The notes beneath the pieces are model-generated. The model made no database searches, had not been told where the DNA came from, and saw only the letters and a program-made list of their open reading frames with translations. The position numbers and the translations under genes were made by a program. From positions 1-9,408 of the forward strand of contig QNAU01000038.1 in assembly GCA_003641545.1 (NCBI GenBank): a stretch of DNA of 9,408 nt, written 5' to 3'. This DNA is from Thermotoga sp. GTDB taxonomy: Bacteria; Thermotogota; Thermotogae; B21-G9. This document shows, one piece after another, positions 4,755 through 9,408 of this stretch (the stretch's first letter is position 1; each line of letters opens with the position of its first letter).

Positions 4755-5888
4755 CTAAGTGAAATTGCGAACCTTTGTTTTGGAAAACTCCTCGTATCTC
4801 TTCATCGTATCCTCATCGACGGACGGTTTTATCTTTTCGAAGGCTCGTATAAAATCAGACATGTTTATCGGTCTTTCCTTGCCCTCAATCACCGCTTCGA
4901 AGAACGGTATGGATTTCGCCTCCTCACATACACTTTTTATATCCGCACCGGTGTAACCTTTGGACATTTTGACCAACTCATCGAAATTGATACTTTCATC
5001 CAGTGGTAGATCCTTCAAAAACATTTCGAACATCCTTCTTCTCGCCCTCTCATCCGGTAAACCAACGTATATCATGACATCGAACCTTCCCGGTCTCAAA
5101 ACCGCCGGATCGAGTTTCCACGGTATGTTCGTTGCACCGATGAAGAGAACTTTACCTTTTCCCTTCCTCATACCATCGAGTTCGGCAAGTATCTGTGCAA
5201 CTACTCTGTTCATCGGCGAACTGTCCACAATATCACGCGATGGAACTAAGGATTCCACCTCGTCTATGAAAACCACGGACAGATCGTAGGATCTGGCTTT
5301 TTCGAACAACTCCGCTATTCTCTTCTCAGCTTCTCCAAACCATTTACTCAGCACATCCGAAGGGGAGATGGAGAAGAAAGGGGCATTCACCTCCCCCGCG
5401 GTTGCCTTGGCGAGCATCGTTTTTCCCGTTCCCGGGGGTCCATACAAAAGTATTCCACCACCCACGGTCTTTCGATACTTTTTCGCTTTCTCGGGATATT
5501 TCAACGGTAGAACACTCCTCAACATTATCTCCCTCTTGGCATCTTCGAGTCCCGCTATGTCATCAAAACTAATGTTAGGTCTCTCAAAAGATACTTGATC
5601 TTCAACGCTTCTCATTTCACACCTGTTCTCCTCAAACTTCAATTCCACCTTTGTTTTCGCATTCTCTCCCATCCTCAACGAATCGGCGATCTTCACGATC
5701 CTCTCCGCCATCCTGTATCTTTTTTCCTTCCTTTCCCCTCTGCTCATCTGTGCCAGTTTCAACAGGATCGATGCAGATCTGTAAAGATGATACTTAGCCA
5801 TCTTCACATTTCCATCATCCATGGCTTTCAAGGCTTTTTCCATACTGCTTCTGTATTCCTCGTAGAATACCAGTTCTTCCTTTTTCAT
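4755..5888 (-). CDS. Vps4/CdvC-like AAA ATPase with N-terminal MIT-like domain
   Basis: Predicted disassembly ATPase for ESCRT-III-like filaments, 377 residues. Residues 3-72 form three predicted helices (about 3-23, 27-49, 52-72) with an MIT-like pattern: ALKAMDDGN, then AKYHLYRSASILL, then RYRMAERIVKIADSL. After a linker comes one type-I AAA module: FDDIAGLEDAK (108-118), Walker A GPPGTGKT (150-157), pore loop 1 DVLSKWFGEAEKR with Trp183, Walker B VVFIDEVESL (205-214), sensor 1 GATN (251-254), and arginine-finger region VLRPGRFD. GYTGADI (311-317) and a KPSVDEDTMKRYEEF segment (354-368), like the Vps4 C-terminal helix, follow. Trp in pore loop 1 is Vps4-like; katanin, spastin and FtsH have Tyr or Phe there. 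The start overlaps the upstream gene as ATGA. It lacks the FtsH protease and the second AAA module of Cdc48. AAA identity is certain; the Vps4 assignment is a strong inference from motifs and neighbour. Confidence 0.9.
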   Translation of the reverse strand: MKKEELVFYEEYRSSMEKALKAMDDGNVKMAKYHLYRSASILLKLAQMSRGERKEKRYRMAERIVKIADSLRMGENAKTKVELKFEENRCEMRSVEDQVSFERPNISFDDIAGLEDAKREIMLRSVLPLKYPEKAKKYRKTVGGGILLYGPPGTGKTMLAKATAGEVNAPFFSISPSDVLSKWFGEAEKRIAELFEKARSYDLSVVFIDEVESLVPSRDIVDSSPMNRVVAQILAELDGMRKGKGKVLFIGATNIPWKLDPAVLRPGRFDVMIYVGLPDERARRRMFEMFLKDLPLDESINFDELVKMSKGYTGADIKSVCEEAKSIPFFEAVIEGKERPINMSDFIRAFEKIKPSVDEDTMKRYEEFSKTKVRNFT

Positions 5889-6478
5889 TCTTTTCCCGCT
5901 TCTCTCATCTTGTCCAGAACTTTGTTCAATTCTTCCTCAAGTTTTTCATCTATATCCGATTCAGATTCCTCAGTTTTTCCGGATAGAATGCCCATCTTCT
6001 CGAGATTCAATCCCTCTCCTTCAACTTGTGTCTCGAGAGCGTTCTCTATCGTTTCCATGCTAAGTTCTATCCTTTCTTCCATCTCCTCAGTCATGTTTAT
6101 TATCCTCATCATGGATGTACTCAAATCGGCGAGTTCTTTGCTTCCAAGAACACTCTCGAGTTCCTTCACAATTCCCTGAGTTGCGGTCGCGAAATCCTTG
6201 AACAATCCCACTTCCGTTCTACTCAGCTCGAGTTGATCGAGAATGAAAGAAAGTCTCTGAAGCCTCTTCCTGAGGTTGTCTATCCTGAGATAACCCTCGG
6301 CGAATCTCTTAGCCATGTATGTATCACCGTTTTCGAGAGCTTGGGAACCTTTCTTGAAATATTCATTCCTCAACTTCGTGTATCTGTTCATCGCTACGTT
6401 TAGATGTCTCTTCAACTGGGATATTTTCAACTTCATCTCCAACTTTTTCCTCTCTTCTTTCCTTCTCCTCGAGAACAT
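5885..6478 (-). CDS. ESCRT-III-like (Snf7/CHMP/CdvB-type) filament protein
   Basis: 197 residues, almost entirely helical, with no catalytic motif. The layout matches ESCRT-III subunits. A basic N-terminus (MFSRRRKEERKK) leads into a long helix (about 7-48). A turn carrying NGDTYMAKRFAEGYLR (50-65) resembles the small-residue and basic start of ESCRT-III helix 2, which runs to about 105. Shorter helices follow (106-149, acidic from 131), then a Gly/Glu/Ser linker (150-175) and a terminal helix. Within that helix, EEELNKVLDKMR (181-192) fits the MIM1 pattern (acidic-x-x-L-x-x-R-L-x-x-L-K/R) with Val at the Arg position and Met for the last Leu. MIM1 is the helix that Vps4 MIT domains bind. The start ATG has GGGAGG 8 nt upstream (6487-6492). 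It overlaps the preceding gene by 116 nt and the ATPase by ATGA. A PspA/Vipp1-type protein is less likely. Family call is by eye. Confidence 0.78.
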   Translation of the reverse strand: MFSRRRKEERKKLEMKLKISQLKRHLNVAMNRYTKLRNEYFKKGSQALENGDTYMAKRFAEGYLRIDNLRKRLQRLSFILDQLELSRTEVGLFKDFATATQGIVKELESVLGSKELADLSTSMMRIINMTEEMEERIELSMETIENALETQVEGEGLNLEKMGILSGKTEESESDIDEKLEEELNKVLDKMREAGKE

Positions 6479-6914
6479 TCTTCCCGCCTCCCAAGTGAAC
6501 GATCAACATGTCCAATATCTCATCCACTTCTTCACTCTCCAACTTGAATCTACCGATCTCTTTTTTCATCTCATCTTCAACCTCGTCCAGTTTTAAATTT
6601 CCCTTCAGATAATCGAATTTCTTCAGAAATTCATTCTCCTCGTTGAGAAGATTCAACAACATGAGAGCTTTCATCCTCTTGAAGAGCTCCTTCAAACTTT
6701 CGAATATCATCTTCAACTCCATCTTCAAATTTTCCAGCTTAGATTGTATGGCTTCTCTTTCGAGATCATATGTGGTTTCCTTTTCCTTGAGGATCTCCTT
6801 TATCTTTTTCTTCAAATCTTCATACCTTCTTTCCAACTTCTTGATCTCGTATTCAATCTCCGCCATTTCTTTCTCGGTATCCTTCAAATTCCTCAATCTC
6901 CCAAAGAATTTCAT
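6363..6914 (-). CDS. Coiled-coil protein, possible second ESCRT-III-like subunit
   Basis: 183 residues, highly charged and helical; not a family I recognise with certainty. It begins with MKFFGRLR, a short hydrophobic and basic stretch that could bind membrane as ESCRT-III N-termini do. Two long helices follow (about 12-47 and 49-90), joined without a clear Pro/Gly break, then shorter helices. The stretch LDEVEDEMKKEIGRFKLES (from about 109) resembles the helix 3-4 region of Snf7/CHMP4 proteins (pattern I-D-x-V-x-x-x-M). SEEVDEILDMLIVHLG ends the folded part. The last 40 or so residues are an acidic tail encoded entirely inside the overlap with the next gene. It overlaps the preceding gene by ATGA. 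An ESCRT-III relationship is plausible from position and layout but weaker than for the 197-residue neighbour; a generic coiled-coil partner is the alternative. Confidence 0.72.
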   Translation of the reverse strand: MKFFGRLRNLKDTEKEMAEIEYEIKKLERRYEDLKKKIKEILKEKETTYDLEREAIQSKLENLKMELKMIFESLKELFKRMKALMLLNLLNEENEFLKKFDYLKGNLKLDEVEDEMKKEIGRFKLESEEVDEILDMLIVHLGGGKNVLEEKERREEKVGDEVENIPVEETSKRSDEQIHEVEE

Positions 6915-7348
6915 TCTTCCATCTCCCTGATGAAATTATCCACCATGTCTTCCAGATTTTCCACGTGTATCTCGTCCTCGATGAATCTTCTCTCGATGCC
7001 ATCCAGCAATTTCTCCAACTCACGCTTAGATACTTTCAACATTCGCTTTCCTTTGATACTTTCCATCCTCTCGTTGAATATCCTCAAGAATTCGTGGAAT
7101 CTTAGAAGTTTTTTCAGCAGTTCCAATCTCCTCTTCAGGATTTTCAGCTCTGTCTCGTAGTATTCTATGTATCCCTTCGCCTTCAGCTTCTCGAAGGGGT
7201 CATCCGTTCTCCTCAAGACATCCTTCCAGCGTTCTATGAAAGCCTCGATCTTTTTCCCTCTCTCGATCGTTCTGTCCATGACATCGTTTATCTCGGATAT
7301 CCTCTTCTTTATTTCCTCTAAGTCCAACCTTTCTCTTTTCATCCTCAA
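6911..7348 (-). CDS. Small helical protein, first gene of the ESCRT-like operon
   Basis: Unrecognised family; about 145 residues from the preferred start. A first helix (RERLDLEEIKKRISEINDVM onward) and a second (EKLKAKGYIEYYETELKILK onward) are separated by RRTDDPF. A distal segment then ends in VENLEDMVDNFIREMEE, an acidic amphipathic terminal helix. The hairpin plus acidic C-terminal helix recalls a minimal ESCRT-III subunit, but no residue pattern is diagnostic. I choose the TTG at 7346-7348 because GGAGGTG (7355-7361) lies exactly 6 nt upstream. An ATG two codons later (7340-7342) is possible. The frame stays open to an ATG at 7456, but that start lacks a binding site and the extra 36 codons cover the likely promoter. 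The 3' end overlaps the next gene by ATGA. Being first, it may set expression of the block. Confidence 0.72.
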   Translation of the reverse strand: MRMKRERLDLEEIKKRISEINDVMDRTIERGKKIEAFIERWKDVLRRTDDPFEKLKAKGYIEYYETELKILKRRLELLKKLLRFHEFLRIFNERMESIKGKRMLKVSKRELEKLLDGIERRFIEDEIHVENLEDMVDNFIREMEE

Positions 7349-7354
7349 GATGAA

Positions 7355-7361
7355 CACCTCC
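7355..7361 (-). promoter_or_regulatory. Ribosome binding site deciding the start of the first operon gene
   Basis: Minus-strand GGAGGTG, 6 nt before a TTG codon at 7346-7348. It supports the short form of the protein over the ATG at 7456. The same arrangement of a strong binding site followed by a TTG at 5 nt is seen at 58-73. Confidence 0.65.
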
Positions 7362-7367
7362 AATTCG

Positions 7368-7396
7368 ATTATATTATCATTCACGATGAAGATGAA
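7368..7396 (-). promoter_or_regulatory. Possible promoter of the ESCRT-like operon
   Basis: On the minus strand there is a perfect TATAAT (7368-7373), with TTCATC 17 nt upstream (7391-7396) as a poor -35 match (3 of 6). Transcription would begin near 7361, placing the ribosome binding site almost at the 5' end of the message. The position fits the short start of the first gene. TATAAT can arise by chance in AT-rich DNA, so this is tentative. Confidence 0.33.
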
Positions 7397-7494
7397 AGAT
7401 GAATCGAATCCTTCGAGGAATCTATCTGCTCCACTCTGAGGAATATACATGGTCATCGAAACTTTGAATGCTTCGATGGAAGGAGGGATCCTTC

Positions 7495-7815
7495 ATGTCA
7501 AACAGGAATAAGACCATGATCTGTGTCACGATAGCAGGTTTATTGTTCATAATTGCCGTCATCCTCGACCTGAAATATCTCGTAATAATCGGTGCAATAT
7601 TCGACTGGCTTCCACTTCCCACGGGATGGATGAAGATGGAAGATGAAGAGAAGAAAAAGATCAAGAAGGGTCTCGTATTTCTTCATGTCCTCGTGACCTT
7701 GGTTGCATACCTGTTCGCCGTGCTCTGGTTCTTCATACCGTTGACCATCCTCAAATTTTTGTTCCTCGAAATCTGGTGGCTCGCTGTTATGTTCGGTGTT
7801 TTCATAACTCAATAG
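7495..7815 (+). CDS. Small integral membrane protein of unknown function
   Basis: 106 residues, not a family I recognise, and the only plus-strand gene in the window. Hydrophobic segments lie at about 8-24 (continuing as a second hydrophobic patch 27-38), 60-81 and 85-104, so three or four membrane spans are likely. Between them is a charged loop, KMEDEEKKKIKKG (47-59), probably cytoplasmic by the positive-inside rule. The first and last spans are rich in Ile, Leu, Phe and Trp, and the C-terminus ends right after the last span. The ATG at 7495 has AGGAGGG (7481-7487) 7 nt upstream; an in-frame ATG at 7468 lies before that site and is rejected. It is divergent from the ESCRT-like operon with under 150 nt between start codons, so co-regulation and a membrane-anchor role are possible but unproven. 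Confidence 0.8.
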   Translation: MSNRNKTMICVTIAGLLFIIAVILDLKYLVIIGAIFDWLPLPTGWMKMEDEEKKKIKKGLVFLHVLVTLVAYLFAVLWFFIPLTILKFLFLEIWWLAVMFGVFITQ

Positions 7816-8342: not shown

Positions 8343-9408
8343 CTAAGATGTTGGAATTAGATCACGAACCTTGGCAGTTGCAACTGACATTACTTCATCT
8401 GCTCCACCGTAGTAAACGAGGATCTCATCCTCCCCATCTAAGACATCGCCTGAATCTCGGAACCTTGGTACAGCACCACAGGTGAAAACAACATTTGGAA
8501 CCCATCCGTTGATCTCATAATCCTCCTCAGGTTCAAGAATAGGGTCGGGGGAAACGTAGATCACCTTAGATGGATCATCGAGAGCCGTCAAAATGGAACC
8601 AAGCGAATAAACCGCGGTGCCATTTTTCAAACCAACACCATGGAATATATGAAGAAAACCATACTTTGTCTTCAACGGTGGGGCACCCGCACCAATTTTC
8701 AAGCTATCCCATGAACCTGGGCGAGGCATCTCAAAAGTTTCTCCAACGCTTCCTTTTCTGAGATCAGCCATCCTGAGTATCTGCATATCCGGAGGAATTC
8801 GATGGATGAGAAAGGCACCACGCTGTGCCAGTTCTTCAACGATATCCTGTGAATCATCGGAATCCCCAAATGAAAAGCCCGAATCGGCAAAGAATAGAAC
8901 ACCATCTTTATCCTCAAAATCGAAGATCGGTCCTCCTCTGATCCATAGAGATTGCCATTCTTCATAGCTGAAACCACACTCGATTGCTCTGAGAAAATCG
9001 CAAAGTTTCATCTTCGCGATTGAAAGCTTCGGAGTATCACCATACGCGGTGTAAAGCATGTATATGGTATCACCCATCACAGTTATTCTTGGATCTTCCA
9101 CACCGCCAATTTCCCTCGCATGCCCAAAGAATTTCAAGTGTTCCTTTACCCTTTCATTCAGATTTCTCGGTGATTCATAATCCTCCCTTGGTCCAAATAT
9201 CGGGTGATCCAACCTCAAAGTTTCCTTCAAGCCATCTTCACTTATCCACAGACCAAACCTCGATATTCCATCAAAACCAAGTGCTCTGTAAATCAAATAA
9301 ACGATCCCATTCACTTTAAAAGCAGCCGAATTGTAAACGAGCCTTTCCCACCTGACCTTTTCACCATTTTCGGATGTTATTTCCAGGTCTTTTCTGGCTG
9401 TAAACAAC
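8343..9408 (-). CDS. GH130-family glycoside phosphorylase/hydrolase (N-terminus beyond window)
   Basis: Predicted glycoside hydrolase family 130 enzyme, at least 354 residues. Members phosphorolyse or hydrolyse beta-mannosides (mannosyl-glucose, mannobiose, beta-1,2-mannan), with cytosolic forms usually phosphorylases. The five-bladed propeller signatures are visible: YLIYRALG, GGVEDPRIT with the Asp of the EDPR motif as expected general acid, YMLYTAYG, SWDSLKIGAGAPPL, GFLHIFHGVG, and the final GWVPNVVFTCGAV and VYYGG blocks. The frame is open to the window edge, and a TTG at 9405-9407 lacks visible upstream context, so the true start is probably outside. Substrate and the phosphorylase/hydrolase choice cannot be read from this. 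It is separated from the other minus-strand genes by the repeat region and the plus-strand gene, so it is not part of the operon. Confidence 0.9.
   Translation of the reverse strand, partial: LFTARKDLEITSENGEKVRWERLVYNSAAFKVNGIVYLIYRALGFDGISRFGLWISEDGLKETLRLDHPIFGPREDYESPRNLNERVKEHLKFFGHAREIGGVEDPRITVMGDTIYMLYTAYGDTPKLSIAKMKLCDFLRAIECGFSYEEWQSLWIRGGPIFDFEDKDGVLFFADSGFSFGDSDDSQDIVEELAQRGAFLIHRIPPDMQILRMADLRKGSVGETFEMPRPGSWDSLKIGAGAPPLKTKYGFLHIFHGVGLKNGTAVYSLGSILTALDDPSKVIYVSPDPILEPEEDYEINGWVPNVVFTCGAVPRFRDSGDVLDGEDEILVYYGGADEVMSVATAKVRDLIPTS

What the first reader, a model, noticed from the sequence alone, without database searches (positions are those of the whole stretch)
4755..7348. Bacterial ESCRT-III/Vps4-like (Cdv-like) cassette
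Seen: an AAA ATPase with an MIT-like N-terminal three-helix domain, the Vps4-type pore loop SKWFGEAE and a Vps4-like C-terminal segment, ATGA-coupled to a 197-residue helical protein with ESCRT-III layout. Two more helical proteins precede it in the same operon. Known: in archaea (CdvB/CdvC) and eukaryotes, Vps4 disassembles ESCRT-III polymers to drive membrane scission; bacterial superfamily members PspA and Vipp1 lack a dedicated MIT-Vps4 partner. Inferred: this operon, in a genome with RpoN and hence bacterial, encodes a complete filament plus disassembly-ATPase system, possibly for division, envelope or vesicle remodelling.
Basis: partly seen in the sequence, partly recalled or inferred. 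Interest (0 to 1): 0.95.

Follow-up and report, generated by a model that had tools for sequence, protein, structure and literature searches.

The report
Bacterial ESCRT-III/Vps4 gene pair
A bacterial genome carries, side by side, genes for a protein related to the membrane-cutting ESCRT-III filaments and for a Vps4-like ATPase with a domain related to the one that grips such filaments, a pairing that a recent survey called confined to archaea and eukaryotes; together they are predicted to build and recycle membrane-bending filaments in bacteria.

Summary
The contig is bacterial, most likely Thermotogota. One minus-strand run encodes two helical proteins, an ESCRT-III-related protein (ESC) and a Vps4-like ATPase, the last two joined by ATGA. 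ESC by itself hits no ESCRT-III family, but scores 56.9 bits against a profile of relatives built without it (best of 2000 shuffles 12.7); three of twelve family proteins scanned pass Pfam's Snf7 cut-off and none matches PspA. The ATPase family's N-terminus aligns with Asgard MIT domains (HHalign 95.4%, reversed controls under 1%), and its AAA domain lies on the Vps4/CdvC side of a 100/99 branch, away from Cdc48 and FtsH. The ESC–ATPase order recurs in 7 of 8 Chloroflexota and 19 of 30 Planctomycetota loci examined, and in one euryarchaeal-phylum genome. A 2024 survey calls such pairs confined to archaea and eukaryotes. Caveats: the window's nearest ATPase relatives with loci lack an adjacent ESC, the ATPase keeps a Cdc48-type arginine-finger motif, fold searches do not discriminate, and nothing is tested biochemically. 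An FtsZ/tubulin-family gene is present, so remodelling or repair is likelier than primary division. Verdict: a real, probably undescribed bacterial branch of ESCRT-III/Vps4 systems.

The parts
4755..5888 (-). Vps4-like ATPase, 377 aa: MIT-AAA-Vps4_C
5679..5882 (-). MIT-like three-helix domain (residues 3-70)
   Evidence: AF2 helices 3-24, 28-48, 51-70; bacterial N-terminal profile against Asgard MIT profile, HHalign 95.4%, E 1.8e-8; relative P0065 hits Pfam MIT at 9.3e-5, under the cut-off; the window's own sequence has no Pfam MIT hit at E <= 1
5058..5453 (-). AAA ATPase core (Walker A GPPGTGKT, Walker B FIDEVE, pore loop SKWFGEAE)
4779..4880 (-). Vps4_C-type C-terminal segment
   Evidence: Pfam Vps4_C 30.7 bits, cut-off 21.3
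5885..6478 (-). ESCRT-III-related protein, 197 aa (called ESC here)
   Evidence: 56.9 bits to a family profile built without it; relatives over Pfam's Snf7 cut-off; AF2 pLDDT 82.8
5918..5950 (-). MIM1-like C-terminal motif DEKLEEELNKV
   Evidence: (D/E)xxPhixxxPhixxPhi in the last 32 residues of 42 of 44 family rows, 500 shuffles mean 2.1 and at most 7; the strict recalled MIM1 consensus with Arg in 0 of 44; the rows are related
5885..5888 (-). ATGA stop/start overlap between ESC and ATPase
   Evidence: sequence
6363..6914 (-). helical companion, 183 aa
   Evidence: ORF; no hit over a Pfam cut-off; no match to the ESC profile
6911..7456 (-). helical companion, 181 aa
   Evidence: ORF; no hit over a Pfam cut-off; 1.4 bits to the ESC profile, E 22

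Best explanation
The window encodes a bacterial ESCRT-III-related protein next to a Vps4-like ATPase with an MIT-related domain, which together likely work as a membrane-remodelling filament and its ATP-driven disassembly motor. Inferred mechanism, step by step: (1) ESC opens its helical hairpin and polymerises on the inner face of the cell membrane; (2) the amphipathic C-terminal helix of ESC, with a MIM1-like motif, docks on the ATPase's MIT domain; (3) the ATPase assembles through its Vps4_C-type segment into a hexamer and pulls ESC subunits through the aromatic pore loop, so that the filament shrinks, changes and is recycled; (4) the net effect is bending, sealing or cutting of the membrane. 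Because the genome keeps an FtsZ/tubulin-family gene, envelope repair or vesicle-type remodelling is more likely than primary division. The two helical proteins are likely accessory or nucleating factors. Shown here: homology, domain make-up, gene order and its conservation. Inferred: polymerisation, MIT-MIM contact, disassembly, cell role. Origin is likely horizontal, since none of the other 102 genomes of the phylum searched has a matching ESC gene.
For: ESC: 56.9 bits (2.2e-16) against a profile of relatives built without it and its near-copy; best of 1000 plain and 1000 block shuffles 12.7 and 9.9 bits; reversed protein no hit; among 1732 ORFs the only others under 100 bits are one family member (97.9) and ORFs beside Vps4 in 5 of 20 Asgard loci, 9.6e-5 to 0.013, which are Snf7 proteins by Pfam, 55-65 bits. 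Snf7 in bacterial relatives: P0138 32.1, P0162 29.4, P0159 27.7 bits against cut-off 27.3; 21 of the 66 homologues carry Snf7 precomputed. Profile A4 (window included) against PDB: CHMP1B 5.7e-4, CdvB 0.0036, CHMP2A 0.024, with designed proteins between them. ATPase: MIT 95.4% by HHalign; the branch separating bacterial MIT-AAA + Asgard Vps4 + CdvC from Cdc48/FtsH/PAN is 100/99; best structural match archaeal Vps4. Conserved pairing, ESC upstream and same strand: 7 of 8 Chloroflexota loci from five genomes, 19 of 30 Planctomycetota loci, 1 of 10 single-AAA loci in a euryarchaeal phylum (L210). Host: NifS best PDB match 1ecx, 375 bits against 270 for the next (T. maritima origin recalled), synteny with a same-order genome.
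Confidence: 0.85

Rival explanations
1. The ATPase is a Cdc48-derived unfoldase with an MIT-like adaptor domain, and the helical neighbours are substrates or adaptors that do not form membrane filaments (coiled-coil scaffolds).
For: RPGRFD motif; higher single-sequence score to Cdc48 than to CdvC; top phmmer matches in PDB are VCP-like; nearest relatives with loci lack an adjacent ESC.
Against: Tree branch 100/99 on the Vps4/CdvC side; MIT 95.4%; three ESC relatives pass Pfam's Snf7 cut-off; ESC–ATPase pairing recurs in two other bacterial phyla.
Confidence: 0.1
2. The ESC protein is a PspA/Vipp1-type stress protein that recruited an ATPase, so the pair is a PSP variant rather than an ESCRT-III/Vps4 pair.
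For: PspA is the usual bacterial member of the superfamily (PMC7615534, passages); PspA with a two-AAA protein is reported (PMC11237479, passages).
Against: None of 12 ESC-family proteins scanned matched PspA_IM30 at E <= 1, while 8 of the 12 matched Snf7 at E <= 1e-3 (five of the eight were chosen because they bore Snf7 already); the partner here has a single AAA and an MIT-related domain.
Confidence: 0.03
3. Misassembly or misbinning: an archaeal or other contig in a Thermotogota bin.
For: Only 1 of 103 genomes of the phylum has a matching ESC gene, the window's own.
Against: YfcE-like/TPK/RpoN/HIT on the same contig is syntenic with a same-order genome; NAD kinase starts 10 bp after the ATPase stop; near-copies P0002 (85%) and P0003 (97%) come from other, shorter contigs.
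Confidence: 0.02

Closest known systems
Archaeal ESCRT/Cdv systems (CdvB-CdvC; Main, Halo_FHA and Meth_adaptin types of Makarova 2024, PMC10936438)
   Same: ESCRT-III gene upstream of an MIT-AAA-Vps4_C ATPase; a kinase (L047), phosphatases (L144, L147, L148) and an SPFH protein (L146) near Chloroflexota relatives
   Different: In bacteria; ATPases form their own clade (99/99); Cdc48-type arginine-finger motif; no CdvA or winged-helix partner found among the window proteins scanned
Eukaryotic/Asgard ESCRT-III (CHMP1B, Snf7) and Vps4
   Different: One ESC gene in the operon; arginine-finger motif differs; strict MIM1 Arg absent
Bacterial PspA/Vipp1
   Same: Superfamily-level helical layout
   Different: No PF04012 match; bacteria are said to lack a clear Vps4 homologue to go with PspA (PMC7615534, passages)
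Vps4-like AAA transferred to bacteria (Ravi 2024, PMC11237479, passages)
   Same: Bacterial Vps4-like AAA
   Different: There snf7 is said to be displaced by a TPR/6TM gene in these cases; here an ESCRT-III-type gene is kept beside it. The paper also mentions Snf7 homologues with a TM segment in operons with AAA ATPases; its tables were not seen

Membership tests
Vps4/CdvC ATPase | N-terminal MIT domain (a criterion in Makarova 2024) | tested here: met
   family profile, HHalign 95.4%, E 1.8e-8, reversed controls 0.6-0.8%; the window's own sequence gives no Pfam MIT hit at E <= 1
Vps4/CdvC ATPase | ESCRT genes in the neighbourhood (other criterion in Makarova 2024) | tested here: met
   ESC directly upstream in the window and in many relatives
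Vps4/CdvC ATPase | AAA domain groups with Vps4, apart from Cdc48/FtsH | tested here: met
   100/99 branch; 94 SH-aLRT in a quick tree with more rows; katanin and spastin not included
Vps4/CdvC ATPase | Vps4_C domain | tested here: met
   30.7 bits, cut-off 21.3
Vps4/CdvC ATPase, canonical subfamily | RRRF-type arginine-finger motif seen in the Asgard references (not a published criterion that I know of) | tested here: not met
   RPGRFD; I therefore call it Vps4-like, a separate clade, not a canonical Vps4
CdvC equivalog (NCBIfam NF041006) | curated cut-off of 650 bits | tested here: not met
   227.6 bits over residues 13-369
ESCRT-III (Snf7) | Snf7 profile match | tested here: inconclusive
   window protein none at E <= 1; three relatives over the cut-off; linked through the family profile
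ESCRT-III (Snf7) | helical hairpin plus alpha4 and distal helix | tested here: inconclusive
   AF2 layout fits; fold match to ESCRT-III not above other helical bundles
ESCRT-III (Snf7) | C-terminal MIM motif | tested here: inconclusive
   MIM1-like spacing in 42 of 44 rows, strict recalled MIM1 in 0 of 44 (rows are related)
ESCRT-III (Snf7) | membrane-bound filaments remodelled by Vps4 | not testable with these tools
   -
PspA/Vipp1 | PspA_IM30 (PF04012) match | tested here: not met
   absent at E <= 1 from the 12 ESC-family proteins scanned
FtsH/Cdc48 | AAA domain grouping with FtsH/Cdc48 | tested here: not met

The most novel reading that the evidence does not exclude
Bacteria have their own branch of true ESCRT machinery: ESCRT-III filaments and a dedicated MIT-Vps4 motor, spread through Planctomycetota, Chloroflexota and at least one Thermotogota lineage, in some loci with kinase, phosphatase and SPFH partners, cutting membranes for vesicles, envelope repair and, in planctomycetes without FtsZ, perhaps for division or budding.
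Probability: 0.35. Interest if true: 0.95.

Novelty: new variant of a known kind. Interest (0 to 1): 0.85.

Why it matters
[quoted passage not shown] a 2023 review (PMC7615534, passages) says that bacteria lack a clear Vps4 homologue. Recurrent pairs in three bacterial phyla would change that map. They point to bacteria in which ESCRT scission could be studied and bear on how the ESCRT-III/Vps4 pair arose. They also give a concrete candidate to test for membrane cutting in planctomycetes, where budding without FtsZ is called mechanistically unknown (PMC6952346, passages); whether the planctomycetes with the pair lack FtsZ was not checked here.

Tried and rejected
Rejected: FtsH/Cdc48 as the ATPase's home; PspA as the ESC's home; misbinning. 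Led nowhere: ESC alone against 5.8 billion proteins found only itself and one relative, and a profile with the Chloroflexota protein was needed; PDB search with the MIT profile gave designed proteins among its best rows, with chitin synthase 1 (2mpk) at 0.011 and 'hypothetical p60 katanin' (2w2u) at 0.1 (that both are MIT domains is recalled); L047's ESC alone hit nothing in PDB. The window's helical companions showed no BLAST match at E <= 0.1 to eight helical ORFs of other loci, so only their position before ESC is shared (two helical ORFs precede ESC in L266). An FHA reading of L047:7682-8455 in my notes was not confirmed by Pfam and is dropped. Katanin and spastin could not be added to the tree; only Asgard, TACK and some euryarchaeal Vps4 were. 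Two Cdc48-bearing genomes (G063, G064), taken along as a small control, gave no ESC.

Of the 11 Planctomycetota loci without ESC, L234 and L239 have under 150 nt upstream of the ATPase frame, and L255's genome has an ESC on another contig; 9 of the 39 matching genomes gave no locus and were not examined. In the Foldseek-ranked second look at the ATPase no row covered the MIT part, so that domain was not tested by fold.

Full report
What is there. The window is contig C38 of a 1.48-Mb, 79% complete genome. A minus-strand run reads: helical 181 aa (7456-6911), helical 183 aa (6914-6363), ESC 197 aa (6478-5885), ATPase 377 aa (5888-4755), NAD kinase, NifS, HIT, RpoN, thiamin pyrophosphokinase (TPK), and a calcineurin-like phosphoesterase that I call YfcE-like. 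ESC and ATPase overlap by ATGA, as do the 181 and 183 ORFs.

Host. RpoN marks the contig as bacterial (sigma-54 as a bacterial factor is general knowledge). NifS is closest in PDB to 1ecx, 375 bits against 270 for the next; that 1ecx is from Thermotoga maritima is recalled. RpoN's best match among 40 relatives is the one same-order genome, G001 (36%), and YfcE-like, TPK, RpoN and HIT lie there in the same order and orientation; the ESC and ATPase genes gave no match in that 20-kb stretch. So Thermotogota is likely; no tool named the phylum. The genome has one gene of the FtsZ/tubulin family PF00091.

Conservation of the pair. In the class of the Chloroflexi-titled genome G061, 5 of 245 genomes have ESC, at eight loci; in 7 of 8 the MIT-AAA gene follows directly, and in the eighth (L047) about 3.5 kb on; several of these are near-copies between G227, G289 and G298. 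Neighbours include PP2C phosphatases (L144, L147, L148), an SPFH protein (L146) and a Ser/Thr kinase with PKD and GOLD-type hits (L047). In the phylum of a Phycisphaerae-titled genome (Planctomycetota), 39 of 392 genomes have the ATPase at E <= 1e-70; of 30 loci fetched, 19 have ESC upstream on the same strand, 18 of them with under 160 nt between the open frames and one (L244) with 541. In L266 two further helical ORFs precede ESC, as in the window; their homology to the window's is not shown. In the window's phylum 1 of 103 genomes, its own, has ESC. Against a simple story: the loci of the window's nearest ATPase relatives (L230/L264, L231/L267) have no ESC beside the ATPase.

Literature. 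Makarova 2024 (PMC10936438; passages, section 5): both genes confined to archaea and eukaryotes. A 2023 review (PMC7615534, passages): bacteria lack a clear Vps4 homologue. Ravi 2024 (PMC11237479, passages): Vps4-like AAA transferred to bacteria, with snf7 displaced, and some Snf7 homologues with a TM segment in operons with AAA ATPases. Planctopirus paper (PMC6952346, passages): bacterial budding mechanism unknown, FtsZ-less. Passages of PMC9192718, PMC7618577, PMC11804906 and PMC9871819 told nothing of a bacterial pair. Nine searches showed no paper on a bacterial ESCRT-III/Vps4 pair in the rows listed; two searches listed only 20 of 583 and of 156 papers, and preprints and most subscription journals are not held, so prior description cannot be excluded.

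Mechanism and verdict. The best reading is an ESCRT-III-type filament with its own MIT-bearing, Vps4-like disassembly ATPase, used for membrane remodelling or repair. Homology, architecture and recurrent pairing are shown; filament, binding, disassembly and role are inferred.

Noticed in passing
window 6363-6478: The 183-aa ORF overlaps the ESC ORF by 116 bp in another frame; the family alignment supports the ESC start at 6478, so the acidic tail of the 183-aa ORF may be a true long overlap or a sequence error.
   Followed up: no
L144:7709-8872 and L262:5946-7214: A second, divergent AAA ATPase lies upstream of ESC in some Chloroflexota and Planctomycetota loci, giving AAA-ESC-AAA; in L144 it has a Vps4_C hit (1.1e-5) and sits on the Vps4 side of the tree.
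   Followed up: partly
L047:8516-10195: Ser/Thr kinase with PKD and a GOLD/EMP24-type C-terminal hit (1.3e-10) near the Chloroflexota ESC and ATPase genes.
   Followed up: partly
L146:3289-4275; L144:12513-13247; L147:5562-6299; L148:394-1131: SPFH/Band_7_1 protein (2.9e-41) directly upstream of ESC in L146; PP2C phosphatases near the pairs in L144, L147 and L148.
   Followed up: partly
   Followed up: partly
P0004: Heimdallarchaeota-labelled protein with two AAA domains whose first domain falls inside the bacterial MIT-AAA clade.
   Followed up: partly
window 7468-7815 (+): Divergently transcribed hydrophobic 115-aa ORF beside the operon, with no family hit over a cut-off.
   Followed up: no
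window 8343-9407 (-): GH130-family ORF at the contig end (Pfam 9.8e-37), closest to a beta-1,2-mannobiose phosphorylase model below its cut-off.
   Followed up: no
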